The translations under genes and the position numbers were made by a program. The notes under the pieces were generated by a model that saw only the letters and a program-made list of their open reading frames with translations, had not been told where the DNA came from and did no database searches. Shown here in pieces: positions 9,783 to 53,459 of a stretch of DNA of 64,000 nt (position 1 is its first letter; each line of letters starts with the position of its first letter). The stretch is from Membranipora membranacea (lineage: Eukaryota > Bryozoa > Gymnolaemata > Cheilostomatida > Membraniporidae), in NCBI GenBank assembly GCA_914767715.1, contig OU612071.1, positions 17,976,948 to 18,040,947 of the forward strand. The letters are read 5' to 3'.

Positions 9783-9806
9783 GTATTTTTCAATGTCAAA
9801 TGAAAG

Positions 9807-9878
9807 AGGGGACACTGGGAGTTTAACCCAGGGCCTATCGGACTGCAGCCGATTGCTCTACCACTGAGCTATATCCCC
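9807..9878 (-). tRNA. tRNA-Cys(GCA)-like gene or SINE head
   Basis: On the minus strand this 72-nt sequence folds as a complete cloverleaf: acceptor GGGGATA with TGTCCCC plus discriminator T, D stem GCTC/GAGC, anticodon stem ATCGG/CCGAT, loop CTGCAGT with anticodon GCA, and T stem CTGGG/CCCAG. One oddity is the T loop, TTAAACT, where C56 of the invariant TTC is A; this weakens the B box. No CCA or T-run terminator is obvious. It may be a slightly decayed tRNA-Cys gene or the head of a tRNA-derived repeat, since a truncated copy lies at 21.68 kb. Confidence 0.65.
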
Positions 9879-12919: not shown

Positions 12920-15125
12920 CTACTTGCCATGGCTGTTCACATATAGGCAAAACCGGTCTCTCACTATTTTTGGATTGAGGCCGCTGAAGTTTGACCCCTG
13001 ATTTGTCAAGCTTCCAAAGGCTTGATTAGATATACAGGCTCTCCATCCGCCATGAATCAGTTGACCACTTGAATCATAGGAGTCAGCAAATCCTGTGGGT
13101 AAATACTTGGCATTGTCTGTGCTCAATAGATAGTTGTGCAAACAGCAACAGGCTTGCACTACATTATCGATGAGATCGAGATTGGCACATATAGGTCTTC
13201 TGAATATCTGCCATCTTGCTGACAGAATACCGAAAGCGTTCTCAATGCATCTACGAGCAGGAGATAAACGGTAGTTATATATACGTTGAGACTCTGAAAG
13301 ATTGCTACCTGGATACGGCTTCATAAGCCAGTTCTTAAGGGGAAATGTTTCATCCCCAATTAATACATATGGTAAGTCGAAGCCATTTACAGGTGATTGC
13401 GGAGGTATTTTTGCATCTCCAGATTCGAGAAGTTGATAGAGATTTGTTCCGTTAAATACAGCTGCATCGTTGTCTCTACCATACGAGCCAACATCTACGG
13501 AGATAAATCTGTACTTAGCATCGCATGTTGCCATAAGGTTAGTCGAGTAAAAACCTTTATAATTTCTGAAGTCTGAACCACCTAGTTTTGGGCACTGGAT
13601 GTTGATATGCTTTCCATCCAATGCTCCTATAACATGTGGAAAGTTCCATTCTTGAAAGTCCTTATCAGCAATAGCCTTCCATTCCGCTTCAGTCCTGGGA
13701 TGAGTGAGGTAAGTTTCATTCAACGCATTCTAGATGGCAGTGCAGCCCTCACGCACAATCCTCGATACACTTGTTCGCCCAACCTGAAACAACAAAGAGC
13801 CCACTATCTTACGGGTATATAAAAATCTGATCCGCTACAAGATAAATGATTGTGTAAAAAATTTAAATTGCTATAATATCAAAAATATGAGCAAAAGTTT
13901 GATCATATTTTTATAGTGCCCTATATTAACATATTAAAAGCCACTGAAAGCAAAGAAAGCGTAGCCCTAATCACAAGCCTTATTTGTGTTGACTAGGGCG
14001 CTTTTCACTAACCCCAAACACATGTTAGGAACTAAGTAAAGTCGGACAGGGAAGAGCTCACTCATATTTTAATCATGCCTGACATTAACATATCAAAAGC
14101 CACTGAAAGCAATAGGACAGGAAAGAAATACTTGTATGAGCAAATAGTTTTCATTCATAGTATATTAACAGCTCGGCCTGTCTGCACGTAGCTGGTAAAA
14201 ATAACATATCGCTGCCTTCTGACCCGTCATGATAATTTAACAGCAAAGGGACATTTGTTTTAAATACCGTGTACTCATATTTCTACTGTAACCCTTTGCT
14301 AATATGTGGGATGTAAAGGTCGTACACAGTTTATCATGATACCTCCTGGATGTATTTTTGGAGTACACATCAACACTTACCACAAAGTTGAAACTCTCTG
14401 ATGCCTGCGTGTTTCCTGTCGCCAGGTAGCGAAGGGTTATAGCAAGGCGTTGCTTTGGGCAGATTACTTCTCTGTTCCAGCAACGCTTGGTCAGATATGG
14501 CCGTGTCAACTCTGCCAGGTGCTTGAATCTCTCTGGTGACATTCGAAGAAATCTACAACAATACCGGGTTTGTTCACAACTAAGAATGGGAAAGGCCTGC
14601 AGAAGGCTTTGAAAAAAGTGACTAGGTACATGGTTTAAGGGACAATTGCTAGTGTTAGATAGCACTAATCTCTCTAGGCCTATAATGTTGCTTCACCAAG
14701 ATGTCAACCATACTAGTGGACGAGCCCTGCACTCTTGACCTATTATTAGTATTCTAACTTACTTATCAGCAAATATTTGTAGCATACGCCACACAAACAT
14801 ATACACTGCAGTAGAAGAAGCTAAGCATTTTCCACTCTTACTCATGGAGGCAAAGTCCAAGGCCACATAAACAGTGTTGTTATTCAATACCATTGTAGAA
14901 TAGTGTAATGAATGTGTCAAAATATAATCCCTACCTGAAATACCACTCACGGTCATTGTTTCTCATGTTTTCCATGATTGTATGGAATTGGCCATGTTGA
15001 TTTCTATTAAGCAGTGTTGGCCTCACCCACCACCTCCTACACTGATTCTCAGCCTCCATCCTTCTTCTCTTGACCCTCCTCTTCAGAAGTGTAATGAGTA
15101 GTAGTCTCTTGTTGATAGCTGCCAT
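12920..15125 (-). pseudogene. PIF/Harbinger DDE transposase, nonsense-mutated
   Basis: This would cut and paste the element. Three exons agree in phase: 14935-15125 (starts MAAINKRL, contains RRWWVRP, ends phase 2), 14381-14552 (RFLRMSPERFKHL, phase 0) and 12920-13783. The catalytic DDE_Tnp_4 domain is visible in exon 3: first Asp in IGALDGKHI, second in VDVGSYGRDNDA, and Glu in RRCIENAFGIL after IGDETFPLKNWLM. C-terminal CCCLHNYL is typical. A TAG codon at about 13731-13733 interrupts VREGCTAI-stop-NALNETY, where the family has Trp (one-base change from TGG). The transposase is therefore probably non-functional unless that base is an assembly error. It lies opposite the MADF-BESS gene, as in other Harbingers. 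Confidence 0.85.
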
Positions 15126-16735: not shown

Positions 16736-19700
16736 TCAGGCTCTTTCGAGATACATTCTGACTGATTTAAGTGAGAAGCTCCTATTTCTCCAGCTCTCCC
16801 AGTACAAACCTATTAACTGGCTATCTGGTACAATCTCAGTCGGGTACGATCTCCCATTGAGATGTGAGGTATAGTCACATGTGCTGACCCACCAAAGTCA
16901 TAGTGATTCAGAAAGAAATCATTCGTGTTGCATTAAAAGTTGTACAATCAAATTGAACAGATTCTTGTAAAACTTTAATCATAAACCTCAGGTCCAATTT
17001 GTTTCAAATTGAATGGCCTTGCACGGAAGAACATTGCATTATTCAAGTCTTAGTTAAATTCAAGTGAGTCAAAACAAACTGATACAACTTATGATTTATA
17101 CAGCTACCAAAAATCCGCTAGTATTACGTGTGCATGGGTAAAAAGGTCAAATTTAAAAAGAATGCAAATTTAAAAAGAATGCCAATATGGACATAATTTA
17201 TATTGATTTTTACCGACAAAGTTGTCCTCCCCGGAGCAGCTCCTGTGAATGGCTGTTTTACCGAACACGTTGCCAATGAGTGGTGATAGGCTGTCTCCTG
17301 CATCACCACTGTACCCGTTTGCCTGGAAAAATATTTGATAAATATTTCTATTGACTACATGGTACCTTATTGAAGTCTATGTATCTTAGTTACCGGCTCA
17401 AATTCTTGCATCACATTACAAAATTAAATAGCCACTGTGTAACACTGAAAATCAAAATTGGAACCTACTCCTAGAAAAAGTTAGCAAGAGGACTGCCCAT
17501 TGTTAGTAATGAAAAACGTACATAGATCAATATCAGACAATTTTGAATAAACCAGTCAAACGATTGTCAAATAGATATTAAGGCTACAAAGACAAAGTAA
17601 TTATAAATTAGCTCATAGACACTTATTTAAATCACATACCTTATTTAACTCATATGTTGTTGATGGACTCTTCACAGAAAACTCTGAATAGTTTGCGAAG
17701 AGAGTATCACCCTCATCAGTTTCCATTTGTATGCTGAGTTGTAGCTCTGTACCCCCCACCGCTATTTGAAAATACCACAGCATCAACAAGCCTAAAATGA
17801 AATAGGCCATGCAAATTTTTTGATTCCCCTCCTGATGAAATGTAATTGAACAACATAAACGTGAACAATCCGTAATCATAGTCAACAAACCGTAACATTC
17901 AGCTGAAAAATTTCCTGAAATAAATAAATAGCCACGCAAACGTGACCGGACTGGACCTATTTACTGGACCTATTTACACAATATGTTCATTCAGTCACCA
18001 CTGTATATTATACATTATTTTAGCCTGATTTGTGATACCTGAGGACTCATGCTAAACAGTTTCCATCTCTTTTCCAACATTATTATGTTGGATTCAAAAT
18101 TGATGCCCACTAAGATTGACAGTGCTGTGATTATTATGATTTAATCAATGAATACCATTGGGGGAACGTTAAAGGTTGATTGTTCCAGCCTCAAGCACCC
18201 TCGGGTGTATACCTCTTCTTATGCTTAACCATTAATACTCTCATACATACCTGCCCAATATTCTCCACCCAAGTCACCAAATCCATTACGATAACTTGAA
18301 AAATCTCTGTTAAAATCGACAGACCCATCATATTGCTCAGAATAGACGGTCCATCCTCGGCTTGTGTCAAAGAAGCATTTTGCTATGTAGAATACATTAG
18401 ACAATGGATTGAGAGGGTACTTCCCGCTTGTGCGTTCTCCCTGTTCAAAGGCATCATGACAATCTAGAAATAAAACAGATCTCAGCAAACAAAGAAGCAC
18501 ATTGAATTGTTTATCTTTAAGGACACAATTATGTGTACCTAATTAGAGAGTCGTTCATAATATGCACATTAATTTAATTTGAACTTGGGTAAACGTAATG
18601 CCGCTGATAACGCGGCTTTAATCCATCACATGTAACGCTGGTACAGCACTAGATTTGTGAAACTTAATAGGTACCATCGATGAAAAAATCAGGCAATTTC
18701 TCAAGCTACACACAATTTCTACCTAAAAGTGCTTTGCATTTTTTCATGGTCATAATGTTGCATATCTACTGCAGACCTAGCTGCAGTACTATATATTGCT
18801 TCAGTCCTTCTGTTGTTGTTACAAAATATAAGATGTCAGATCATTATAAGACAAAGTTCATCCCTTCTTCTCACCTTTATAGAATACTTTAGGTGCACAA
18901 ATCGGATCAATCGTCACTCTGAAGCAATGCTGGAATATGAATATTATATTATATCATTTGATTTTTAATTGACTTAGTACAAGATATTTGATGAAAATTT
19001 AATCTACTATTATGATTTTTATTGGCCTATGACTGACATAAACCATTTATTCATCATTTAAAAAAAGGAGGTTTTACAACTTTGTGAAATTAATCACAAA
19101 AGGAAATCAAGTAAACAATACAATGTATCATATGGATCGCTTAGGGTGCTGGAAAAATAAAATAACACATAAGTTTAGCATTCATTCACCTACCTCATCC
19201 CTCAAGTAAGCTGACATACTGGCAGCCCAGCGACACCTACTTAGAGCGAGTAACAAACAACAATGTGTAGTGTTCTCTTCATATCGAGGCTGTACTTCTG
19301 CCGTGTGGCAGGTGTGGGTTGACTCATAATAAGCCGCATATCGGCACATGCGATTGCCTTTTATTCCCTTACAGATCTGCGTGCATATGCTGAAGTTCGG
19401 TACATCTTTAAATCAAATTTATGAAAACAAATTGATATATATAACAAAATGCCAATGGTTTTTAATTGTGACGAAGGAATGCGGCATCAAAATACATATA
19501 AAGTTTTTGTCATTTAGTTACAGAACAAAGATTAACACAGCAGGAAATGCGGAAAATCTGATAGCTGAAGTGCATTGATAAAAGTTGTCTAAGTGGAAAT
19601 GATCTTGTTGTAGAGAGTATCCGCGGTGGAATTTTATGACTCAATTTGACTCGTTGATGATGAGAATTAGTAGGTTTGTCTTTACAAAAAGTTATTGAAA

Positions 19701-25589: not shown

Positions 25590-27988
25590 ATGGCAGGGAC
25601 TGAGGGATTGAAAAACTTTCAGTGGAACTGCAATGGTATACGTGGAAAATCCTTCATTTTAGACAGTTATATAGATTACTACAAACCTGACATCTTTGCG
25701 CTGACAGAGACTAAACTTAATAATGATGTAAGCGATAATGAAATCTGTAAAAACTACTCTCTTTACAGGTATGACAGAGTTGACTGGCTGGGCAGGGGTG
25801 GTGGTGTACTTATTGGCATCGCTGACCGCTGTCCAATCACTGTCAACTCAATAGATATATACCCACATGGGGAATTACTCAGCCTTAAACTCTCTATTAC
25901 AGGTTTCACTTTCACCATTTGTATTTATTATCGCAGACCACAGAAAAGATCCGTTGATGATATTATAAAATGGTATAACAATCTTCTAGACCCAAATGTG
26001 TTGGTGTTGGGTGATTTTAATTTACCTGACATCAACTGGCAAACACTAACCCTTAATCCAACAACACATGAGACTGTGCATCAAACATTTATTTATTTTG
26101 TATGTGCTAACAACCTAGAGCAACTAGTGAATTTCCCAACCCATGATAAAGGTAATATTCTTGATCTTGTTTTGACTAACATGGACCATCTTACACACCC
26201 GCAGGGTGATCCTAGCTTCTCTGACCACCTGATCATTTCTTTTACATTGTTAACTAGATTTAAAATAGAACGATCAACTGTCTCACCAAACCCCACTCCG
26301 TTTTGGCAGATTGCCAAAGCTAACACAGCCAACATCCATCTGGACTGTTTTGCTCTTGAAAAAGACATTACTTTAGCTATTGATACAAATGTTAACGTTG
26401 AACCTGTGTGGTCTTTGTTGAAGGCAGGACTCATGACAACTTCATACGCCAACATTCCTGACTGCGTGAGGAAAAATCGGCTTAATCACTGGTTATCAAA
26501 GGAATGTATCAAGCAAATAAGGAAACGAAGAAGGTGGTACAAAGTTAAATGTCTTTATCCTACTAATAATAATGAGAGATTAAAAACACAGTCTAAACTA
26601 TGTAAAAAACTGATAAACAGAGACTATAACAATTTTATTAGAAGACATTTATGTGGTCAGCTTGATAAAGGTGACAGTAAGCCTCTTTATAAATTCATAG
26701 CTAATAAAAATCGTTCCAATAACACAATAAAACAACTGGATGGCTGCGCCTCCGGTGACAACATTGGTATTTGTGAGAGGTTCGCTGATGCTTTCTCCTC
26801 AGTGTTCACCGTTGACAATGATCAGTCTATTTCTGTAAGCCAACTTTCATGTTCTCAGCATAACCCTATAACCTTCGACAATAATGGTATTATGAAGCAA
26901 CTGTGTGGTCTTGATGCCCGTAAGGGCGCTGGACCAGATAATCTCTCTTGCATTACTTCGCTTTTTGGCACCTTACATTTCTCGTATTGTTTGTATCATT
27001 TTTCAATATATTTATGACACTCGTGTTACTCCTGTGGACTGGAAGATAACCCACGTCATACCAGTGTTGTAAAAAGGTAAGAAATCTGACCCCCTGAATT
27101 ACCGGCCAATTTCCTTGACGTGTATTCTATGTAAAGTATATGAACATATAATAGCCCACAATATACATGCATATTTTTCTGATTACGATCTGCTATTTGA
27201 ACATCAACACGGTTTACGTAAAAACCATGGATGCGGCACCCAACTATTAAACACTGTTATTGATTATGTCAATTACTACGATGACAATATACCAGTTGAC
27301 CTCGCTGTCCTAGATTTTTCTAAGGCGTTTGATGTGGTATCCCACACCAAACTTCTAGCCAAGATAACAGCCATGGGTATCCATTGTTCTACAAGAGAGT
27401 GGATTGCCTCATGGCTCAGCTACCGTAAACTCTTCGTCACTGTCAATGGTCATCAATCCAATTCACGTACAGTAACCTCTGGGGTGCCCCAGGGGAGCGT
27501 TCTGGGTCTGTTATTATTTCTAATCTATATAAACGATATGCCTACCCGTATAACATCAAGCACGTTAAAATTTTACGCCGATGATTCTTTACTATATCGA
27601 CCAATCAAGAATATTAGCATACAAAACTTAGTGTAGACAAAAACTTGAGTATGCCTCCCATACGTGGTCTCCCCATCTATTAAAACATAAAAACCTCATT
27701 GAAGCTATTAACAGGAAAGCTTTCCGCTGGTGCTTTTGCTACAGAAAGTATGATAGCATCAGTCATCACATGTTTGCTAATAACTGGCCCTCCTTGGAAA
27801 CAAGGCGGGCCGAGCGTGATTTAGATATGTGCATGCGTATACTTTCAGATCAAGCAGTTGTGGACAAAGACAGATATACACTCCAGCAAAGCGAACAGCA
27901 TGACACAAGACACGTAGCCACTAAGGGTGTCATCAACACTGACGTGAAGAAGTTCTTCTTCCAAAATAGGGTTTTCAGAGCTGCCTGA
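25590..27988 (+). pseudogene. LINE ORF2: APE endonuclease and reverse transcriptase
   Basis: The endonuclease (to about 26,240) shows FQWNCNGIRGK, DIFALTETKL, RGGGVLIGI, VLVLGDFNLPDINW and PSFSDHLII. After a frameshift near 26,950 the reverse transcriptase continues: NYRPISLT, VLDFSKAFDVVSH, TSGVPQGSVLG and the catalytic FYADDS. The frame stops at 27,634-27,636. A distinct C-terminal segment (LEYASHTWSPHLLKHK, then FFQNRVFRAA) follows to 27,988, implying a deletion of the region between them. The element cannot retrotranspose by itself. It is assigned to the CR1/L2 group from the domain order and motif style. Confidence 0.85.
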
Positions 27989-39449: not shown

Positions 39450-40110
39450 CCTGAGAAACTGAAAAGACGATTCATCACGTTGAGGGGCCAAAGTATCATT
39501 CTGAAAATTTTTATGGACAATGGTAGCTGTTGGCAAGGTACTGCAAGGACAGTGATGTGGTAATGACACCTTTTCACTGTTGGCTTAGTTCAACTTTTTT
39601 TGCAAACCGTCTTCTAATCATAAGAGCTTCAAATAACAAATGGTGTTAGCAAAAACTAGATCTATCAGGTACTTCATGAAAAAGAGGCTTCATACTCAAT
39701 CATTATGTCAATGAGATACCACCGCCATCTCCTGGTACAGCTGAAGCCATCATAGTGGCAGCCAGAACATTATGGTATTCCCAAGTTAAATGATCTGACC
39801 CATTTTGTTTTGAATGATCATTGATAGCTGGATCCTTGAAATAGACAGTCAGTAATAGGGGGGGGGGATACTTTACAATAAGGGGGGGGGGGACACTTTA
39901 CAATATGGGTGACACTTTACAATAAGGGGGACACTTTACAATAGGGGGGAGGACACTTTACACTAGGGGGGACACTTTACAATAGGAGGGGGGGACTGCT
40001 TACAATAGGGGGAGACAGTTAGCGTAGGCCTTTCGCTATTTCAAAACTCCCCAGGACAATTTATATTATTGTATAATGCCCCGGGGTTGTTTTCGCCCAG
40101 GGGTCAGTTT
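39450..40110 (+). repeat. Interspersed repeat family R1, copy 2, expanded array
   Basis: Unique-like part (to about 39830) aligns with 61.87-62.24 kb: blocks CATTCTGAA, ACTCAATCATTATGT, CTGGTACANCTGAA, CATCATANTGNCAGCCAG and ATCTGACC. It is followed by an expanded array (39858-40020) of the roughly 19-bp unit GGGGGACACTTTACAATA, at least eight units. It ends with CCCC(A/G)GGACAATTTA and a GCCCCGGGG-type segment also seen in copy 3. It is non-coding. Confidence 0.7.
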
Positions 40111-41139: not shown

Positions 41140-43609
41140 ACTTCATGACATCTTGTCAAACACAGCCATATCTAGCAGCACTCACAAAAGATACACCAGC
41201 TGAGGGTAGAAAACTGTGACCTATGTTACTTCCTGCTGTGTTTGCTTGCAAAATGTGTCATTGTTTGCATCTTATTATGTTATTCGATTAGCAATAATTG
41301 TTCTGTTTAGTTTTATCACTAAACAGTTCAGGAAGCTATGTATAGGTATCAGCCTGCACATTCTTGTGATGTATTCTTGGGCAGGCAGGATTTGGCAGTG
41401 GTTGCTAGTATAAATCCCGGCCATTGCACATGAGTGCGCTAAGTTGAACAAATATATATGTCTCTATGTTATATTCCTGTAAAGATTGTTGGAGAGCAGC
41501 TAATAAAAAGTAATTCACATTTTACATTTACATTAACCAGCACCCTGGAGTAGATGAGCTGCTTGCAGATGCTACCTTTAAGCTTGCTTGGAATAATTAC
41601 AAGCATTATGATTGTGAGTATTAATTTAGGTACCCAAAGGAGTGTGATTCTATGGTGGTGTCTTTCATGATATTATTTGAATTTCAGTCTCTCCCGGAGG
41701 AAAGCTTTAATTGCCAATCTGAATATGTAACCTGTCGGATCAAGGCTTTAATCCAGGACAGGACACAATTTGTGTTTGCACTTCATCTGTCCAGGCTGGC
41801 TAGAGCAAACACAAAACCTACTTCAGGGCCGAACCTTGGCTTTGTATATATTTTCAAAGCTGTGAACCTTTTATTGCATAAGCTGATTACTTACTGTAAA
41901 TACTGCATAGTTCATGAAGAGGTATATTTATATCATCTGGGAAAAGTATGACTGTGCACATGATCATCTATCATTTAGCCTTCGAATAAGAAAAGTTTTA
42001 GTTGAAAAACCCCTCAGAGTGATAGCTATCCTTATTAGGTAATATCAAAATATTACGACCTACATCTCATCATACATGTCGCATATGATTAAGGTCTCAA
42101 CTATCAACTTCAAAATCAATCGAACTTGGTAGATTGTGTTGGCTCTGATTGATGGGTGGGTCTTCTCGGCCCACCAACATATCGTATTTCACATATCTTG
42201 ATGACAAGCCAACACGGTTCAGATAAAAGAGATCCAACTTGTTGTCCTAGTTCTTTTTGCACTATATATTATATATTGCTGGAGGAAAATCTTGTGTGAA
42301 CATATCAGACAAATTTTCCCTCTGGCACCTGTTAACTGCTCTGTGCATGTTCAAGATAACGAATTTTTATGTTTTTCTCTGCAGCATGGGCTTGAATTAA
42401 TTCAACTAGACTGAGTACCTATTTTTTGGAAAAAACTAGTTTTGGTGTCTCATTTCTTTGAACTCTCTCGATGGAAATCAGCGCTACCATTGCTGTGGTG
42501 CAGTGATAATGTATGTCATCAGAGTATCCTGCAGGCAGAATGTCTGTAGAATCTCTCATAGCGTCTGAAGTCAACTGAACTGAACTGAGGCCAAGCAAAC
42601 AAAGTTATACTAAGACTGTAGATTTATTTATCACTATACAGAGATGTCTTCTTTTTGAACAAGGGGACACAACTAAGAATACGTCTGTCAGGTTACACTG
42701 GAAAAACCTCAAGAATGGAATCCTAGTGTCATCATTCAACATTCCATTAAAGTGAAAGACAACCACAAAAGTTATAATTTGATATTTTATGCGTAATGAT
42801 GTACTCCTTCTAAATTTGGATGTTATAAATAAATGTTAAATTTTAATTATTTCAATTACAAGCTCTCTTCCACGTTTGTGTTTCAGTTACACCAATACCC
42901 ATACTCTCAAAATAAATTATTGGAAAAAAGTGATGTATAAATAATTTTTATTCTAGAATCGAAGCAGTTATCTTTCGTTGTGTCAATCTAAATATATAAA
43001 CAGTCATCTCAGTTACAAAATCATCTACAAAAACAATGTTATTGCTTTCAATAACGCAATTAAGCATTTTCTTATGATAGCTTCTCAACTTAATTCTGCT
43101 TACTGCAGCTATGGGATGGAGGGGCTACTGACTGCCCTGTGGTGAAGATCCAAAGCTTATACCTATAATTTCTATTGTTGAGTATGTTGCCTACTGGTGA
43201 AAGTCAATTGCATCTTGATATGTATTTAGTTGTGCCAGTGTTGTCTTCTATTTTAACTGCCCATATTATAATTTGAAGGCCAACTAAGGCCACGAAGATA
43301 ACAGACTGATGACTACAACAGTTCCAATTAAGTAATCACACAATGTTAGATTAGCTGATGATAAGTTTTTTATTCTGTCGGTGAATTGAAAAAGAAGTTA
43401 AAAATATATTATAAGCAAATTTCGTCACATAGTACGATATTGAAAATAAAGTTTCGATTTAGTAAAGAAACAGAATATGCTATGTTATATTTTTGTTAAA
43501 AGTTCAATTTCAATGTGGCATGAAAATTACATTCAAATTCAGTTATACATAATGGGTTATGTTGGGTGTTCATTCTTTAACTTGCTCCTGCCATCATGAA
43601 TATATAATT
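41140..43609. other. Intergenic DNA, no gene seen
   Basis: AT-rich sequence. The plus frame 41652-41951 follows a possible acceptor (TTTCAG) but shows no recognised domain. No RNA genes or element ends were identified. Confidence 0.35.
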
Positions 43610-44271
43610 CTAACGTTTCTTTCCGAAGGAAAAGCTCATAGGCGACAAACCAAAATTGATACGCCTTCTGCCTATATTCCAGCTTCCAAGATTCATGACC
43701 CTGTGGATACAAAATAATGTGATGAACGCTATGTTTAATTCAGGTTGATGTGAAATCAAAAGATATACATGACATAAAAGGAATACTTTCAAATGATTCA
43801 AATAATTATGTGCAGGCAAACTGGATTCAATTTCTTTTAAATGGCTCAAAAAATATTGCATAACACAAAACATCTAGAATAAATTATTTTTTGTTGTACT
43901 ACTTACGGGTTATACGATCTATACGGGTCCGGCATTCCATAGTTCCTATAAAAAGAAATTAAACTGTGTTAACAAGAAATAATGTGATGAACAATATTTT
44001 TGAAATCAGTTTGATGTGATATCAAAAGACAACCATGCCCTAATGGGGAAACTTTCCACTGTAGCAGCAAGTTGAATCAAATAACTTGAAGTGCTTGCAA
44101 ATTAGACTAACTCGTATATAAGACTTGTGAAGCAAAACTCTGATACCAATCCAGGCCTACATGATATAAGTAAATATCCCTAATTACTGACTACCTAACC
44201 CTTAATCAACAAGAAGCACTGTATACTGTCAACAATGGTTCATCATATTATCTAAGCAGTTTTGAATGTCA

Positions 44272-44307
<36 letters not shown>

Positions 44308-44449
44308 ATTTTTATATGAAGTAGAACAAAGCACTATTAAACTTCACTCACCAATCGAACGAAGATCGCTTGTTTCTCATCAGAGAGTGAGCAGAGCTCA
44401 TAACAAGTAAAGCGAAGAAAGTGATATAGAATAATCTAAGTATTTCCAT
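43610..44449 (-). CDS. Precursor of two amidated neuropeptide-like peptides
   Basis: Three exons join in phase: 44352-44449 (phase 2, donor GTGAGT), 43907-43945 (phase 2, donor GTAAGT) and 43610-43700, encoding 75 residues. Residues 1-22 are a signal peptide (MEILRLFYITFFALLVMSSA and on). Then LMRN-KR, a 28-residue peptide beginning SSFDWNYGMPDPY and ending NLGSWNIG, an RRR site, INFGLSPMSFSFG, and KKR directly before the stop. Gly before each multibasic site predicts C-terminal amidation: ...GSWNI-amide and INFGLSPMSFSF-amide. This is a textbook neuropeptide precursor. The -FSF-amide end recalls F-type SALMFamides, but the Ser expected at -5 is Met, so the family is unassigned. The gene is paired head-to-head with a paralogue at 52.4 kb. 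Confidence 0.87.
44273..44304. repeat. (TA)n microsatellite
   Basis: About 15 TA units in the first intron of the amidated-peptide gene. Confidence 0.95.
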
Positions 44450-44605
44450 GATGATGAGAGTATTGAGACTTTCAAGTCACTCTGTAAAATGCTGGATGGT
44501 CTGTTCTGAGTGAGCTGCTGCCTTTTATACTTAAAATACAAGGAAGTATTGATAGCAATGTGGTCTGTCAATGAAATAATGGCAGCCTCGTATGACAACC
44601 ACAAC
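44450..44605 (-). promoter_or_regulatory. TATA promoter of amidated-peptide gene
   Basis: TATAAAA at 44523-44529 (minus) within GTATAAAAGGCAGCAGCTC, 74 bases before the ATG. The block from about 44600 to the start codon is highly similar to 52.23-52.38 kb, including the 5' UTR (ACTTGAAAGTCTCAATACTC then TCATCATC). Transcription probably starts about 30 bases after the TATA box. Confidence 0.8.
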
Positions 44606-44609
44606 ACAA

Positions 44610-46489
44610 CATGCTGCCAAAATTATAATCAGTAATGTCTGTTTTTGCAAGATTTCAAATTCTATAGCCTGTTTTTCATGTCATGCATTTAACTCCATTG
44701 TTATGTGTTCATATAGTAGATGTTGATATTTTCCTTGTGATTTGGTTTCAATCTAATAAGGGATGGGCCTCCTAAATTGAAATCTGAAAATAAAATCTGA
44801 TTTTCTTCTAATATCATTTAATTGTTGACAGCAAAAAGTCTCAGTTGTCAATGATGTAGGCTAATATGTGCCACGTGTTGACTTCACCTGCTCAAATTGT
44901 CACATCTACTTCCTTCATTTTTTCGGTCTAACCCAACAGCAGATAGTAATTTTGTTATTGCTAATTTGATGTAAATCCCCATGTGAATACAGAAGAGATG
45001 GTCTGATTGTATCGTGTAGGAATTTGTTGGCAATATAATCAAGGCCTGTGATTGAAATATTTTTAGATTTGGCACAGGCAAGCCACCATCCTAGCCATAT
45101 ATGTACAATCAAGTTTTATTGCATGTATAGAGATACATCTTGTCTCTCTGTTGACCACTCTGTTCTCAGGGTTCTTGCAACATTGATTTCAGGAGAAATC
45201 GAATCACGGTAATAGCATTGGTTCATTCTCGAGAGCTTTGCATATAGAACAAATTGCAAGTTTCAAGGTGTTTGGGGTAAGTGATTCAACCGGACAAGGT
45301 ATTGTTACACAGGTAGGTTACACTGAGCCCAGTATAGTAGCGGTTAAGCTATTATTCCCTTTATCAGGTTAGCCTAGCATACTCAATCGAACAACAAACA
45401 TATAAATAGATACTAAAGCATGCTGATTGGGAAATGTTTAGGCAGAGAAAGGTGATGATCATCACGAGTTGGTGACACACAGGGGTGTCTTAAACTAGAC
45501 TCGATCCGATAATTTCAGGTTCAAATCCCAGTCACTACCCATGCGATGAGCTCATCATACATAACCCTAGCTTTCCTACCCCTAACGTGTACAGAGGTGC
45601 GCTATATTGATGTGATGAAACTTGTGAGCATATTCTCTTTGCCCCTAAAGGGGCCTTGAATGACAATTAAATTGATCATTTTTTTTAGTATTATTATCTT
45701 CATAATATTGTGTTGTTCTAGCTAGAGAAAGACGTCAACATTTTCAGTTTCTCTCACTGTGATAGTGAAACAGAGAATGCATTGACGCTCCTGCAAAGGA
45801 CGTATATGACAGACAATCAATTCCTGCCAAAATTTATATTAAGCAGGTGTGACTGTACCTTGAGGTCGCGTGATGATGCTAGCATTAGGCTACTAACTAA
45901 TAACATCAGCTGCTGCAAAAAATATTGATATATTAAATTATGTGGTTGCTTTTGTCAGCTGACTCCACATATTCTATGGGTACATCTCTAAATTAATTAC
46001 AAATTTTTAAGGAGACTGCAGCCAATTAGGCAAGATGATTGTTCTTTATTAGGATAGAGGACATAGGGATAATATAACTTTGACAATGTCAGGCACAATC
46101 TGATAATGCTTTATTAGACTGGTGGTTGGATGATTGAGCAGCCAATAAAACTTAGCAGACATAGTGCTGCACCTTATTGAAACCAGCCCCAAGGCTTTTG
46201 CAGATACAGGTTACTGATTGGGTGTTGTATTACTTTCACTAACTGTTAACTGTTGCTGGGAGAAATATCCAGCTTTCGAAAATAACAAAGTTGCCTTGCA
46301 TGCAAAAAACTAGGATAGGAAAATAGAGTTTTGATATAATTTCACATGCGGTCCAAAAAGCCGACCTGAGCAGCATCGTTCAAAAAATGCTGTGTAATAT
46401 TTTCATCACCAGTATGCGACTGCATTATAAAATTCTTGGAGTCAACTAGGGAGTCTAGACTCTGGGTCATATTCCAGTTCTAGTCTTAA
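44610..46489. other. Intergenic DNA with one SINE-like candidate
   Basis: No gene seen. The interval between the two peptide genes could hold shared regulatory DNA, but nothing specific can be pointed out apart from the separately listed candidate at about 45.46-45.69 kb. Confidence 0.3.
45460..45690 (+). repeat. SINE-like sequence with Pol III B box
   Basis: Contains a consensus B box (GGTTCAAATCCCAG at 45520-45533) preceded at about 60 bases by an A-box-like GAGTTGGTGACAC. It ends in GGGGCCTTGAATGACAATTA followed by a T-rich stretch. There is no second copy in the window to prove repetition. Confidence 0.4.
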
Positions 46490-46866
46490 AGGGCAACCAA
46501 GGTTTCAAACAACTTCCCATTGATGGCTATTGATTGATAGCAGATTGCACCTTCTGCATGGGGAAAAAGACAAAATATAATTCGGCTGATTATTCAGCCA
46601 GAATTCTTGTGAAACATTTCTTCCATCAGGTACTCAAACCCAGCTAAAAGAGAATGCCATAGAGCAGTTTCCTGTTCCTGTTATTATTTAGCCTGTGCTC
46701 TATAATTATTACAGCAAAGTCTTGGAACCTCCCCTAAACTGAAGTGTTACCCAGCTTAGAGTCAGCAACTACTTTGAGTTTTGCATCGCGTAATGCACAA
46801 AGCTGATGCTGCCCAGCACATTATTTGCTACCCATTAATGCATTGCTGCGAAACCTTGGTTGCCCT
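46490..46866. mobile_element. TTAA-flanked MITE, 377-bp copy
   Basis: Bounded by TTAA (46486-46489, 46867-46870) with inverted ends AGGGCAACCAAGGTTTC on both sides (perfect over 17 bp). Subterminal sequences differ: CAAACAACTTC at the left, GCAGCAATGCATTAATG at the right. Both are shared with the short copy at 41 kb. It is non-coding. Confidence 0.85.
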
Positions 46867-47259
46867 TTAACGAAATGCATCTCTCAATATTTTATGCGTG
46901 TCATTCTTATCTTGTTGGTAAATGGCAGGATAGAAAACTTGAAGACTGCACATGAGTGATGCACTAAAATTTTCAAAAAGCATGTAAGATAATAGTCTGG
47001 TATTCAGACCTACAATGAGGCCTTGTCTGTATCATTGGTGGTGTTGGATATTGCTTCTGTATATGAGCATATAGTGATATTTACCAAAATTCTATTTTCC
47101 GTACACCAATTTTCTTTCAGGTGAACATCACTATTACATGAATGATTAAGTTTATCGATGTGATCAGATCTTGACACGAACACTGTAATATTGGCATAGG
47201 CAAATACAATAGGTTGTCATGTGTATGGGAGAAAATTGATGACATATATGAAGAATCAA
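46867..47259. other. Intergenic DNA, no gene seen
   Basis: Nothing recognised. Confidence 0.3.
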
Positions 47260-48000
47260 CTCAGTGTAAATTTCTAATGGAAGAATTTTAAGCTACCTGC
47301 ACCTTGTTTTGTGGATAGAAATCGTGTCTCATCTGATAAGAAAGATTTTATTGGAGAGCCGTACATTATCAATTTTCTTAGATGAATTTTATGGTCGCCG
47401 CAGTCAAAAGCTTCTTTGCAATCCAAGAACATCATAGCCAAAAACTGACCATCTGATCTTGCTGATAAAAAGTCAGAAAAGAGTTTGTGCAGGGAAATCC
47501 TTGTCTAAATCAACTTTGAAACTTGTGAAGAAGTTTGTTTGAGGTGAATTATTTTTGAATTTCAGATAGTACATGAAGTATTGATATAGAGCTATAATTC
47601 GATAGATATTTGATATCTCAACCCTAATGAATAGGAGTTACTCTAGCAGTTTTCTTTGTGAAGGAAATACACCCTCTATTAATGCTTTATTAAAGCAGAA
47701 ATGACAGGTGACGAAATGCTCCCAAGTTCTCTGAAGGTTTGAGAATTTTTTGAAAATTGATTTTTGATTTTGAAGTTGCCCCTCAACCATAGACTTCAAG
47801 TCAGCAGTTGGAGGCAGTAAATTTAGAAATGCTAACAAATCTAAAATAAACTAGTATTATGATGCATTTATGGATGAGGCTCTGTTTTTTTGTTGCGCAT
47901 CCTTCATGCACTTTCCCTCGTCAGCTAATTTGCTTTTACTTTCTACAGAGGAGATAAACTCTGGTAATATCCCATCAGGGCCCTAAAATTCATTAAGTCA
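47260..48000 (-). mobile_element. LINE reverse-transcriptase remnant
   Basis: On the minus strand: a proline/glycine-rich DGI-like motif near 47970, EGVFPSQRKL (the EGVFP(S)xWK region before the RT core) near 47660, and MFLDCKEAFDCGDHKIH with LRKLIMYGSPIKSF near 47310-47430, corresponding to the (L)D(F/L)xKAFDxVDH motif. The frames are scattered with stops and shifts. It is an old non-LTR element; the clade is not determined. Confidence 0.6.
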
Positions 48001-50308
48001 CTGATATACTACTACGACCAGTTGCCTTCTTCTCAGAATTGGAGTAAAGCATGTCAATTGAGAAGAAGTTTTGGTGGTCACTGGTTTAATAATTTCATAT
48101 TACTGAGAAACTTAAACTTCAATTCATCAGGGGATAAACCATCATCATTGATCATCGGTTAAATTTTAGTTTTAGTGATTCCTAAATTTTCCCGAACATG
48201 TTCGTTTTGGTTTGATACAAAGTTACAAATGTCTTCTTAATACAATTTGTAACTGTATTTGTACGCAAGACTAAAGAACTGTTTTTTGTACTTGGGTTTA
48301 CTTTTATACTCAGGCATGCTATTTGTCAAAGTCTGTAAGATGTTCAAATTGCATGGCGTTATGTATGAAGAGAACAAGACCACCACCGTAGCCATATCCA
48401 CAATCCCCAAGTAAACTGACAACCTGGCATCGCATTAAGAACCACACCGTGATGATGCTCATTTAAAAATGATTATTTTTAGTTAATCCTAGCATTGAAA
48501 ATTTAAGTGGGCGCAAAATCGGTCTTACATCCTCTATTTTGCTGGTAATTCCGCAAACATTGAAAAATGAAAATTTAGAATACATCATCTTATTTGCTCA
48601 AAGTTACATTTATCACTTTGTGATTGCAGGTAAATGACATTTTATTTGAAAAAAAGAAATGTTCATGATATTTGCACTCGATTTCCAACATTAATTGCAT
48701 GGGTTTCGTATCCTTAAAAGTTTTTTCTGAGATCGCATCTAGGTATAGCATTTTTATGTCATTAATCTCGATGCTGTCATCAGCATCCAATGACACACCC
48801 TTTAGCAAACCCATATTCTCCGACAGGGACTTTGGGTCGATTATTTCACTCATACTTGATCCTCCGAATAGATCTATATTTCATTTACTTAAGGTGTTGT
48901 TCTTAGTTAGGCTTGCTTTTTTTTTATTATAACTTTGGGTTCAGTTGTATTAAAGACAAAAACATCTTGTAATTTTTTCATAATATTATGATGATTGATC
49001 CAAAGGATTTGTAGAGTGTATATTGCGCCCTGGTCATAGTTACTGTGAGTGTTGGAGTCCTTCTTAATTTCTATTACAATATTGACTATAGGCCTGAAAT
49101 TGTTGTCTTTGGTTTCTTCATTTGGGGTTTGTGTTCTTGTGTTGGATCAATTTTTGCTGTTTGTTTAGGAAGTTGATAGCTAGTATAACTTGATGATCAT
49201 AGTTAGCCTAGTGTTGTGCTGATGCTGTCTGGTTGCTCGGAGTAAGATTTTCGTATGATGTGAATTCCAATTTATCTGCTTAATTGCATCAGGCTGCTCA
49301 ATCCGCAAACAACCAGTTTTTGTTTGACATTGTCGAGGTTATTTCCTTAATTCCTCATACCAAATAAACAACAACCATGTGATCAACTGGCAGCAGTCTG
49401 ATAACATGAAATTCCCAGATCTATCAGCCAATATTTTCAGGCACCCTATCTCCTTTTGGCTGTTTTTGAGGATAACTGGGCACCAATTAATCACATTTTT
49501 CCTTGTTCTGTGGTTAGGTCTCTAGTAACAATGCAGATATTCATCTGCTCTGCCCAGGGTTGTTGTGTTGTGAGAATCAGGAAATGAGGAAATAACCTTG
49601 ACAATATCAAAAGAAACTGGATAATGCTTGATCTGACTGATTGTTTACTGAGTGGGTTGCTGAATTGTGTATACACACAGAAAAAAGTTAGAATTTAAAT
49701 AACACTAATTAAATATCAAAAGGCATATAAGAGGTGAATGAAGTAGATGTTGATTCCAAGATAGTTCCCCCCACTTCACCCTTAAAATCAATCAGTTTTT
49801 TTACTCTCAGATCATCTTCTGCCAGCTGTATCAAAAGACAGTCGATATTCTCAGAGTATCAAATCTCAGCTGATCGTACTTCAATTAACAGGTTATTTTA
49901 GAATCAAAATAATCCATTGCAAGGGTTAAGTGGGGCAATATCTTAGAATCAAAACAACGCTATTTTCTTTCTGTGTGTTGTCATCATCACCTAACTTAGC
50001 AGCTTAACTAATTTGGTGAGAGCTTGCACACACAGAACAATGAGGGATTCTGTATTCTATTTGCACACTTAACAAGATCAAACTGGACAAGACAATATTA
50101 ATTATCATACAGGGCCATGGCAGAAGGCCTAGCTTCAATTGAGGTTGGGAGAGCTGCACAGTGATTTTGTGCATGTCAACACACTTTTAAACCTCATCGA
50201 CACCTACCAAGCAAAATCTAAATGAACTGTAAATATTTACAATCAAGGAGGGTACAATCTGCTTTCATTAAATATAAATAATGTGTAAATAAAAATAATT
50301 GATATTGT
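48001..50308. other. Intergenic DNA, one unassigned minus frame
   Basis: A minus frame of 87 codons at 48590-48853 (IDPKSLSENMGLLKGVSLDA, then EINDIKMLYLDAI) has protein-like composition. No acceptor, donor or known domain supports it. It might be a further piece of the LINE upstream of the RT remnant. Nothing else was seen. Confidence 0.3.
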
Positions 50309-50869
50309 AGGGGCGTTTTGAGTTCATTACTGAACTCCAGATTTGCGCAAAATTTTTTGATCTTGGGTAGGCAAGTAAAAACCTGGGGTAGAAAATATCT
50401 AGGGTTGAGCCCGACTGATCTGGGGTTGAATTCCAACTATGTAAAATAAGAAGAGGTTCTTTTTCCTCACCTCACAAACCCCCCTCAGCCAGTATGGTAA
50501 GGTGGCCTTTGCTCTAGAGGCAGTCAAGGGCCAACTAGCAATGTGTAGTGACAAGTATTTAGTATGTTATTCGGACGACCATAGACTTTCACCTCTAAAT
50601 TGTATAACATTACACCAATCAACAACCTTAGAGTTCTACTATAGCCAACTAAACATGTTTATAGTCTGGTAACCTAGTAATAACAAGATGGCCGCGCCCA
50701 CAAGCTCATTCACGGTCATACATGAGTGGTGAGTTTGAGCATATTTTTAGCTTGTTATAATTCTCAACTCTAGATTTTCTTTCTAAACCCCAGACCTAAT
50801 CAACCCCCAAAAATCTGGGGTTATAAATTCAACCCCAGGGAGGTCTGGGGTCGGGGGTACTACGCCCCT
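50309..50869. mobile_element. MITE-like element with AGGGGCGT ends
   Basis: 561 bp beginning AGGGGCGT and ending ACGCCCCT. Subterminal DNA on both sides is rich in CTGGGGT/ACCCCAG motifs in inverted arrangement. The flanks GATATTGT and GGTATGTA match only partly, so an 8-bp hAT-type duplication is possible but degraded. Confidence 0.55.
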
Positions 50870-52229
50870 GGTATGTAGTGACATTGAGTTGTTACTAGAA
50901 TTTGCTCCTGTAGCGAGAGTTTCAATCATCAGGTTTATTCAACACATACGATGCCCGTTGCCGTGTTCAGAAGCTAAAACAGTTCTATTGGCCAGCTGTG
51001 TCAGTAGAGGATGAAATGCATTTCTCTTCCTCAAGTGAAAGATAATTTACAGGCAGCTGATTAGGGTTCTGTCATGAGGATTAACAGTGGATTATCTATT
51101 CCATGTTTGAACCGATCTACAGGCACCTTGATTAGAATATGATGAGATAGATCATATTGAACAAATTCCCAAAGACCTTTTTCTCCATGCATTCTTAAAA
51201 ATATTGTCCATTCTCAGCCCCTAAGAGCTAATCCTAATTGATTTATGTTTTATGGCTTCAGGCGACATAAGGGAAATAAAAATGAGTATTGATATCAAAG
51301 TATTGGTTAGCGTTATATTCACATGTAGACCATCACTGTGTGACAGCTGACATAAACATCCTACTGCAAAGCAGACCAATGAACCATTTGATCATCTACT
51401 TTTCATTTCCTTGTTTGTCCAATAAACTGCAGATATTTGCCTAAAAAGGAGATTTTCTTATTATAAGCCATCATAACACAGTAAGGAAAAATCCAAACCA
51501 CTGCAGACAAATTAACAAATAAATGCATTGCCCGCGATCATGCAGCACTGCTGATTTTGTTGGGTCCAGAAGACTACAAGCAAGATCAGTAATACCCAAA
51601 CAGCTAGTGTGAAACACAAGGAGATGATCCTTCAATAATGATAGATGCGGCTAAATAACTGCTAAAGACAATTTTCCTCATGACATTTTTGTTAGGTACA
51701 GCATTAGTTAAACAGCTTTTTGCTAATATTTTAGTATTAGAGAACGCAGCAATGCTTACATATTCTACAGATCCGTTTGATTGTTGACTGCAACCTGACA
51801 TTCGTCTCCTTCCCACAATCAGAGATTGCTGAAGTATGAAATCTGTTGAATGGTCAATCAAGCTCCCTACGAGACCGATTATCTCTAATTATCAAAGATT
51901 TGGCCTCATTCAAAACTGCAAACTGGAAAGTCTAACTAAATCTCCTAATGTAACATTCCCCAGTTGAAATTGTGCTCAGATGTGATTTACCAAGCTTGAT
52001 GGACATCCCCTCCACAACCATAACAGCTAGTAATGTGGCAGAATCATAATATTTGTAGATTTATTTTAATTTAAATTTCCTCGATTGTTCAGCAGTTGCA
52101 ACAACTGCTGCTGTATTACTACTATGACAATATTCCATTACTTGATGGCTATTTAGCACCACCAGACTGCCTGCATCCATATGATGATTTATAGTTAAAC
52201 CACAATACAAGGAAAACTGTTGTTGTCGA
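50870..52229. other. Intergenic DNA, no gene seen
   Basis: Minus frames at 51604-51861 and 52061-52333 show no domain; the latter overlaps the promoter of the next gene and is rejected. Confidence 0.35.
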
Positions 52230-52377
52230 GGTGAAATGACGCTGTCATCGTTATCTTGACAGGCAAAATTGTTATCAAAACTTCCTTGTATTTTAAGTAT
52301 AAAAGGCAGCAGCTCACTCAGAACAGACCACACAGTGTTGTACAGAGTGACTTGAAAGTTTCAATACTCTCATCATC
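52230..52377 (+). promoter_or_regulatory. TATA promoter of paralogous secreted-peptide gene
   Basis: TATAAAA at 52298-52304 in GTATAAAAGGCAGCAGCTC, 74 bases before the end of the 5' UTR. Near-identical to the promoter at 44.45-44.6 kb, including CTTCCTTGTATTTTAAG before the TATA box and CACTCAGAACAGACCA after it. Confidence 0.8.
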
Positions 52378-52956
52378 ATGGAGATATTAAGAATATTCTA
52401 TATCACTTTCTTTGCTTTACATGTTGTGAGCTATGTTCACTCATGGTACCATATATCTAGGTGAGTGAAATTGAATCGAGCGAGGTGCGAGGCGATATTT
52501 TCACTTCCTTATGGAATGATTAATGTTTATCCATCAAATCATTAGTTTGGTCAATACCTTGGCTTGTGTGATTATTGATTTATTAAATGTATTAATTTAT
52601 TTTTATAAGATTTTACAAGTTTGTGCCATTATTTATTTTAATCATTGAAATGATGTTGTGACCTATTTATTTTGTTTTTTTAGGAGGACCACTCAGAGTC
52701 CATTTCCTACGTAAGTAAATTATTGCATATCAGCTATTCATGAGATGTATTTCAACTAAAAAGTAAAATTCTTTCTGTGAAATAAGTTCAATCAAGTATA
52801 TCTGTACATTTCTTGCAACAACACATAGTCAAAGTGAAATCCCCTTATATATTTAAATTCCAACGACAATAACAATAATCATATTTATTTCATGTTGACA
52901 GGAGGTATACGTTTCCCCCTTTCGAGCGTACAACTGAGGAACCTTGGGAATGGTAA
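52378..52956 (+). CDS. Small secreted peptide, paralogue with diverged mature part
   Basis: Exons 52378-52460 (phase 2), 52684-52710 (phase 2) and 52902-52956 join in phase to 54 residues. The signal peptide, beginning MEILRIFYITFFAL, matches the 43.6-44.4 kb gene at 13 of these 14 residues. The intron phases are the same. The predicted mature part is unrelated: WYHIS, an RR site, then TTQSPFPTRYTFPPFERTTEEPW and a final EW given here by its ends only; it has no Cys and no Gly amidation signal. It may be a second hormone-like or defence-like peptide. The mature product is short, proline/threonine/aromatic-rich and acidic at its C terminus. All splice sites are canonical (GTGAGT, GTAAGT; TTTTTTTAG, GACAG). 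Confidence 0.75.
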
Positions 52957-53459
52957 TCTAACAAAATCACAATCAGGCCGCTTTGGTTATACCTACAGAT
53001 CCGGAAAGAAACCATAGAATTATATTTCTATGATGAATACTAATGACTATTTCTTAATTGCCTGCATGCAATGATTATTATCAATACGAAAAATCATTCT
53101 GTGTAATTTTTTTTAAGGTGACCCCCTAATCAATAATTCTTTATAATTTTAAAGCTTCTAATTTCTTTAAAAGTCCTCCATAGAATAAAGAACCTGTCCC
53201 ATAAGAAGATAATTGTCCAATTATGAATTAATTAGTATAGAAAGATCAGGGATTTGGGACAACAACGTCTATATGAACACGAAGTATAGGATATAACTCC
53301 CAAATGTGAATAACATCACAACCTTTGTTGATTTATTCAGACATGATGTTAACAGGTTTATATTGATGCAGGACCGAAAACGTCTATGAGCGTATATTGT
53401 GCGAAAAAAAGTACTGCACTAAGAACTAGCCTCGCCTAAATCTGGCTTAGGGATTCTTA

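What the first reader, a model, noticed from the sequence alone, without database searches (positions are those of the whole stretch)
43610..52956. Head-to-head peptide gene pair: promoter and signal peptide conserved, mature peptides unrelated
Two three-exon genes 7.9 kb apart in divergent orientation share about 150 bp of promoter/5' UTR with the same TATA context, 13 of the first 14 residues of the signal peptide, and the same intron phases (2, 2). Yet one encodes two Gly-amidated peptides and the other a Pro/Thr-rich peptide with no amidation site. Conserved delivery with replaced cargo is a pattern of fast-evolving secreted peptides and could mark an undescribed peptide family. Exon structures and similarity are seen; the neofunctionalisation is inferred.
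Basis: partly seen in the sequence, partly recalled or inferred. Interest (0 to 1): 0.88.

Follow-up and report, generated by a model that had tools for sequence, protein, structure and literature searches.

The report
Bryozoan secreted peptide gene family
Two neighbouring genes of a sea mat (a colonial marine animal) are shortened members of a family of small secreted peptides that we could not find described, and their peptides, which looked unrelated, can be traced back to a common ancestor.

Summary
Both three-exon genes are there as described: 222 bp of promoter plus signal exon at 85% (E 3e-70), intron phases 2,2. "Mature peptides unrelated" is wrong. They belong to a family of at least 22 loci on two chromosomes (plus B). 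Of 13 precursors modelled intact, 11 carry an RxKR site and 11 end in an amidation signal. Gene A (44 kb) is a shortened relative of paralogue L4 (3' tree 99/98) with a second amidation site; gene B (52 kb) is a truncated relative of L5 (100/98), and a remnant of the ancestral amidated end lies behind its stop. The mature exon is under purifying selection in several other members (dN/dS 0.08-0.27 in four pairs; 0.43 and 0.61 in two others), but no constraint was detected on it in A or B. The pair is one of three partly colinear head-to-head blocks. No homologue turned up in three searches of 5.8 billion proteins. A defence-peptide role is inferred; there were no expression data.

The parts
44516..44530 (-). 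core promoter of gene A (GTATAAAAGGCAGCA)
   Evidence: 15 exact matches in the genome, 0 for the reversed control pattern; 12 of 15 stand before family genes, the other 3 show no family gene
44352..44449 (-). gene A exon 1: signal peptide and RNKR site
43907..43945 (-). gene A exon 2 (39-nt micro-exon, phase 2-2)
   Evidence: the intron before it resembles three introns of L4
43610..43700 (-). gene A exon 3: shortened domain with two amidation signals (WNI-GRRR, FSF-GKKR)
   Evidence: DNA alignment with L4 last exon
43369..43374 (-). gene A polyadenylation signal AATAAA
   Evidence: 3'UTR similarity to paralogues
52297..52311 (+). core promoter of gene B
52378..52460 (+). gene B exon 1: signal peptide; no RxKR site
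52684..52710 (+). gene B exon 2 (27-nt micro-exon, phase 2-2)
52902..52956 (+). gene B exon 3 open part: Pro/Thr-rich, ends at TAA 52954-52956
   Evidence: the same TGG-TAA-TCT-AAC is present in paralogue L5
52957..53035 (+). non-coding remnant of the ancestral amidated C-terminus and start of the old 3'UTR
53184..53189 (+). gene B polyadenylation signal AATAAA
44531..52296 (.). head-to-head intergenic stretch, colinear in pieces with two other C7 blocks

Best explanation
A and B are two shortened members of an apparently undescribed family (at least 22 loci) of secreted peptides in the bryozoan M. membranacea. Shown from sequence: signal exon, short phase-2 exons and a last exon that in most modelled members encodes a Gly-rich, cysteine-free domain; copies multiplied by segmental duplication, including three partly colinear head-to-head blocks on chromosome 7. 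The last exon is under purifying selection in several members. Gene A is related to L4, lacks interior sequence and has an extra dibasic amidation site; gene B shares an early stop with L5 and lacks the amidated end. Inferred: precursors are cut after RxKR by furin-like or prohormone convertases and, in most modelled members, amidated by PAM; the intact members most likely act as host-defence (antimicrobial-like) peptides, about 45% likely. B may be non-functional.
For: Spread: union (13 loci; adds L31; add L055, L056, L057 and four more on C3), plus B = 22 loci. Organism: contig 7 of 28,508,536 and contig 3 of 35,043,895 bases, mitochondrial contig 14,741, total 339.34 Mb, against chromosome 7 28.51 Mb, chromosome 3 35.04 Mb, MT 14.7 kb, 339.4 Mb in PMC10290214. 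Two 3' lineages: B+L5+L13 100/100; A+L4 99/98; A+B rejected, AU p 3e-10 (12 of 22 loci). Exon 3 alignments with flanks. Purifying selection on the mature exon: L6-L12 0.08, p 4e-5; C3a-L056 0.18, p 1.7e-4; C3a-L055 0.19, p 1.5e-8; C3a-L057 0.27, p 7e-5. Blocks. Gly 16-22%, no Cys, net charge +2, +10, +3 in L6, C3, L12. RxKR.
Against: No RNA or peptide evidence. C3a-L12 mature dN/dS 0.61 is not significantly below 1 (p 0.17) and C3a-L6 is 0.43 (p 0.019). L4's predicted mature part has net charge -3 and only 10% Gly; A's pieces -1 and 0, B's -2, so not all members are cationic or Gly-rich. L055, L057 and L059 lack the C-terminal amidation glycine; L12 and B lack RxKR. No antimicrobial profile matches.
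Confidence: 0.7

Rival explanations
1. A neuropeptide or hormone family: regulated-secretion precursors cleaved at KR/GKRR, the amidated ends being receptor ligands.
For: Signal peptide, dibasic sites and C-terminal GK[KR]R in 11 of 13 intact modelled precursors; A would release two short amidated peptides.
Against: Conservation runs over a 50-76 residue domain, not only a short C-terminal motif; no repeated peptide copies in the 13 precursors; L055, L057 and L059 lack the amidation glycine; many duplicated copies would be unusual for a neuropeptide (general knowledge).
Confidence: 0.25
2. Secreted structural or adhesive peptide (cuticle, glue or skeletal matrix), Gly/Ser/Tyr-rich.
For: Gly-, Ser- and aromatic-rich, cysteine-free composition of L6, C3 and L12; conserved TATA core promoter.
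Against: Short, single-domain precursors with convertase sites and amidation signals, no repeats.
Confidence: 0.15
3. One reading: conserved delivery with positively selected, replaced cargo (conotoxin-like).
For: A-B promoter and signal are similar while exons 2-3 differ; A-L4 exon 1 is constrained (0.31, p 0.031) and exon 3 is not (0.93); B-L5 exon 3 1.2.
Against: A's and B's last exons are traceable to paralogues; dN/dS near 1 also fits loss of constraint and none is significantly above 1; mature exon constrained in several other pairs; no cysteine framework.
Confidence: 0.1
4. Gene B (and L5) are decaying pseudogenes whose 5' end still looks good because it is young or was homogenised.
For: Shared early stop, no RxKR in B, downstream remnant in another frame, B-L5 mature dN/dS 0.73 with p 0.62; L13 and L31 have broken signal exons.
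Against: B keeps an open frame, splice sites, core promoter and AATAAA.
Confidence: 0.45

Closest known systems
Insect attacin/diptericin Gly-rich antimicrobial peptides
   Same: Pre-pro layout with an RXXR site before the mature part, Gly-rich domain, lack of cysteine bridges, charges from -3 to +10 reported for attacins (PMC7924397, passages); local NGRHS..GYS and GYSYxF resemblance of the C3/L6 type to diptericin epsilon (sequence from a table passage of PMC6271921).
   Different: No Attacin_C match (at E<=1; at E<=10) although the same library finds diptericin epsilon (E 7e-6, just under its curated cut-off). The profile match beats shuffles (2 of 1000 reach it; 2 of 500 with a second alignment) but vanishes when only L055, L057 and L059 are used (297 of 500 reach it), so chance or convergence is likely. 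Micro-exon gene structure.
Amidated neuropeptide precursors of lophotrochozoans
   Same: Signal peptide, dibasic cleavage, C-terminal GKR-type amidation signal.
   Different: One long conserved domain, no repeated copies, many duplicated genes; no homologue found.
Conotoxin-like fast-evolving secreted peptides (recalled)
   Same: Signal exon plus separate mature exon, gene duplication; in A-L4 the signal is the more constrained part.
   Different: No cysteines in the predicted mature parts examined; mature exon under purifying selection in several other pairs.

Membership tests
Attacin/diptericin | Attacin_C (PF03769) profile match | tested here: not met
   Searches (E<=1; E<=10): none; positive control one search finds diptericin epsilon, E 7.2e-6, 26.7 bits (curated cut-off 28.8)
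Attacin/diptericin | RXXR furin-type site before the mature part | tested here: met
   RxKR in 11 of 13 intact modelled precursors, not in B or L12; also RFKR in L055 and RVKR in L057, L059
Attacin/diptericin | Gly-rich domain without cysteine | tested here: met
   L6, C3, L12 (16-22% Gly, no Cys); not met by L4 (10%), A (7-8%), L5 (3%) and B (0%), also without Cys
Attacin/diptericin | sequence similarity beyond chance | tested here: inconclusive
   suggestive for the C3/L6 type; L057 2093 of 5000 shuffles and deep-only profile 297 of 500 show none
Attacin/diptericin | induction by bacteria and killing activity | not testable with these tools
   no expression or assay data
Amidated neuropeptide precursor | signal peptide, dibasic cleavage, C-terminal Gly for amidation | tested here: met
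   amidation signal in 11 of 13 intact modelled precursors; not in B, L5; signal peptides judged from hydropathy only
Amidated neuropeptide precursor | similarity to a known peptide family | tested here: not met
   no Pfam match above cut-off, no homologue
Amidated neuropeptide precursor | neuronal expression and receptor | not testable with these tools
   no data
Conserved-signal, hypervariable-mature peptide family | mature region evolves faster than signal | tested here: inconclusive
   mature better conserved in 3 of 5 comparisons, signal in 2 of 5; A-L4 follows the pattern

The most novel reading that the evidence does not exclude
Bryozoans possess their own, so far undescribed family of furin-processed, Gly-rich and often amidated host-defence peptides, built on symmetric micro-exons, kept in head-to-head pairs, with conserved long members and a periphery (genes A and B) where shortening and new cleavage sites are generating short peptides.
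Probability: 0.35. Interest if true: 0.62.

Novelty: new member of a known kind. Interest (0 to 1): 0.42.

Why it matters
A review of bryozoan biology and compounds (PMC7230173) does not use the words neuropeptide, antimicrobial peptide or peptides in its main text (word search). A multi-copy family with a constrained domain gives clear synthesis targets, and its range from long constrained members to shortened ones could show how short amidated peptides arise from a larger one.

Tried and rejected
'Unrelated mature peptides': rejected. Exon capture behind a shared 5' module: not needed, since A's exon 3 flanks match L4. Gene conversion between A and B: considered because the 5' tree is shallow and B+L5+L13 is rejected there (AU p 0.019; four AU tests were run) though 100/100 in the 3' tree; A+B itself is unresolved in the 5' tree (49/0), and A+L4 and B+L5 are not rejected (0.27 each), so conversion between A and B is not shown. 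A bidirectional promoter: the two cores are 7.8 kb apart. A head-to-head partner was sought 5-11 kb upstream of L7 and 5-10 kb upstream of C3b: only weak matches (best tblastn E 0.05, best promoter fragment E 0.006 over 25 bp). L12's block shares the intergenic DNA of L31/L5, but queries A, C3 and L6 found no second gene there. Resemblance of FSF-amide to echinoderm F-type SALMFamides: recalled only, dropped once the organism proved to be a bryozoan. Diptericin kinship: see membership test. PDB profile hits at E 0.09-0.6 taken as chance. Paper searches (listings only, top rows where long) showed no description of the family; only this open-licence library was searched. Structure prediction was not run, because loci taken from whole genomes are not among the sequences that tool says it accepts.
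Full report
Where it is. The window lies at G000:C7:17976948-18040947 of a 339.34 Mb assembly of 18 contigs. Contigs 7 and 3 have 28,508,536 and 35,043,895 bases and the mitochondrial contig 14,741. These match the sea mat Membranipora membranacea: chromosome 7 28.51 Mb, chromosome 3 35.04 Mb, MT 14.7 kb, 339.4 Mb in 21 scaffolds (PMC10290214, passages read). The mitochondrial COI is open under the invertebrate code and under four of the other five codes tried, so the code alone does not decide; the identification rests on the sizes.

The observation. Both gene models hold: three exons, phases 2 and 2, GT-AG sites, a TATA core promoter and an AATAAA 227-235 bp behind the stop. Promoter plus signal exon align over 222 bp at 85% (E 3e-70); a further 34 bp at 85% (E 3e-6) join the very end of A's coding region and 3'UTR to a stretch just behind B's stop. 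That second match indicates that the last exons are related and that B's open frame ends before the ancestral end. The downstream remnant is in another frame than B's exon 3.

The family. Genome searches with A's exon 1 (13 matches, B not among them), with the core promoter GTATAAAAGGCAGCA (15 matches, reversed control 0; 12 at family genes, of which L31 was new; the 3 others show no family gene), with the L6 last exon (13 matches) and with the L055 last exon (17 matches) give, with B, a union of 22 loci, 15 on chromosome 7 and 7 on chromosome 3. This is a lower bound, since the tool scores only its best candidates and several queries did not complete. Fourteen precursors were modelled: A, B, C3a, C3b, L4, L5, L6 to L11, L12 (13 intact) and L31, whose signal is cut by a deletion. 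L13 has a shift of frame in the signal exon. L4 has six exons, all phase 2, with micro-exons of 24, 39, 33 and 30 nt. L055, L056, L057, L059 and L060 were read as open frames only, without a splice model; no exon 1 of L056 was found in about 1.7 kb upstream; two loci were not read.

Anatomy. The fullest form is signal peptide, RxKR, a short Pro-containing stretch, then a Gly-rich domain around G-T-R-L-G-x-N-x-W-L-G..G-x-G-G..W-x-x-G-Y-S-P (alignments of 7 rows). None of the eight predicted mature peptides examined has cysteine. RxKR is present in 11 of 13 intact precursors (not B, L12) and C-terminal GK[KR]R in 11 of 13 (not B, L5); L055, L057 and L059 lack the amidation glycine. L4 is only 10% Gly.

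Selection. Mature exon 3 dN/dS: L6-L12 0.08 (p 4e-5); C3a-L056 0.18 (1.7e-4), C3a-L055 0.19 (1.5e-8), L056-L055 0.24 (5.8e-7), C3a-L057 0.27 (7e-5), L055-L057 0.39 (0.0036); C3a-L6 0.43 (0.019) and C3a-L12 0.61 (0.17). Signals: L6-L12 0.49, C3a-L6 0.49, C3a-L12 0.23, C3a-L055 0.36, C3a-L057 0.65, L055-L057 0.49. Residue identity is higher in the mature part in 3 of 5 comparisons and in the signal in 2. The near-identical L6-L11 copies pooled give 0.38. A-L4: exon 1 0.31 (p 0.031), exon 3 0.93 over 29 hand-aligned codons (p 0.79); B-L5: exon 3 1.2 (p 0.74), whole mature part 0.73 (p 0.62). These are Nei-Gojobori counts on short alignments, some with dS above 1. So the mature exon is constrained in several members but not detectably in A or B, which fits either loss of constraint or change of function.

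How A and B arose. The 3' tree of 12 of the 22 loci has two lineages, B+L5+L13 (100/100) and the rest; A joins L4 (99/98), B joins L5 (100/98, B on a long branch), and A+B is rejected (AU p 3e-10). A's exon 3 aligns with L4's last exon including both flanks; A lacks interior sequence, and where L4 has I-G-N-R-G, A has I-G-R-R-R, the internal amidation signal. That A lost rather than L4 gained sequence is inferred from the other long members. B and L5 share TGG-TAA-TCT-AAC where C3a has TCA-TCT-AAC-AAC; the simplest reading is a shared early stop, though the alignment is gapped there. The 5' tree is shallow and does not resolve A and B.

Genome layout. A/B, L31/L5 and L4/L13 are head-to-head pairs whose intergenic DNA is colinear in pieces, so the arrangement was most likely inherited by block duplication. 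Two further divergent pairs lie on chromosome 3 at 27.461/27.468 and 30.481/30.486 Mb by exon-3 positions; their colinearity was not tested. L6 to L11 sit in duplicated pieces of up to 8.8 kb, the long ones at 95-99% identity.

Relatives. Nothing was found for A, C3a (9 candidates, none scoring) or a five-member alignment (1059 candidates, none at E<=1) among about 5.8 billion proteins, in Pfam above cut-off, or NCBIfam (3 members); PDB searches gave none or chance-level hits. The layout recalls attacins and diptericins. A diptericin sequence from PMC6271921 gave a profile match that 2 of 1000 shuffles reached and 2 of 500 with a second alignment, there over 8 columns only. Pairwise tests were weak: C3a 110, L056 46, L055 342, L057 2093, L6 543, L12 780, L4 593 of 5000 shuffles reach the score. 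The deep members alone gave none (297 of 500). The target was chosen after noticing the likeness. Membership is not claimed.

Verdict. The pair is real and belongs to a family that our searches did not find described. The contrast between promoter and peptide reflects shortening and divergence in two copies, not unrelated cargo. Function is inferred: defence peptide about 45%, signalling 25%, structural 15%.

Noticed in passing
window 17613-18500 (-): Open frames matching Fibrinogen_C: 18225-18500 E 9.5e-15, and 17613-17939 E 0.0014, below the family's cut-off.
   Followed up: no
window 12920-13723 (-): DDE_Tnp_4 transposase open frame of 267 aa.
   Followed up: no
window 25590-27636 (+): Retrotransposon remnant: endonuclease and reverse transcriptase frames.
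   Followed up: no
window 9806-9878 (-): tRNA-Cys.
   Followed up: no
window 39857-40017: G-rich tandem array around GGGGGGACACTTTACAATA.
   Followed up: no
window 44273-44305: Pure TA dinucleotide run of 16.5 copies inside intron 1 of gene A.
   Followed up: no
L014 (C7 27519905-27522252): Paralogue L4 has six exons; three of its introns resemble the intron before A's exon 2.
   Followed up: partly
C7 22.3-24.9 Mb (L009, L010, L042, L043, L044, L011): Six near-identical gene copies inside multi-kilobase segmental duplications in both orientations.
   Followed up: partly
C3 27.461/27.468 and 30.481/30.486 Mb: Two further divergent pairs of deep members; three chromosome 3 loci carry a TAG within the stretch matched to L055, in L057 right at the C-terminus.
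   Followed up: partly
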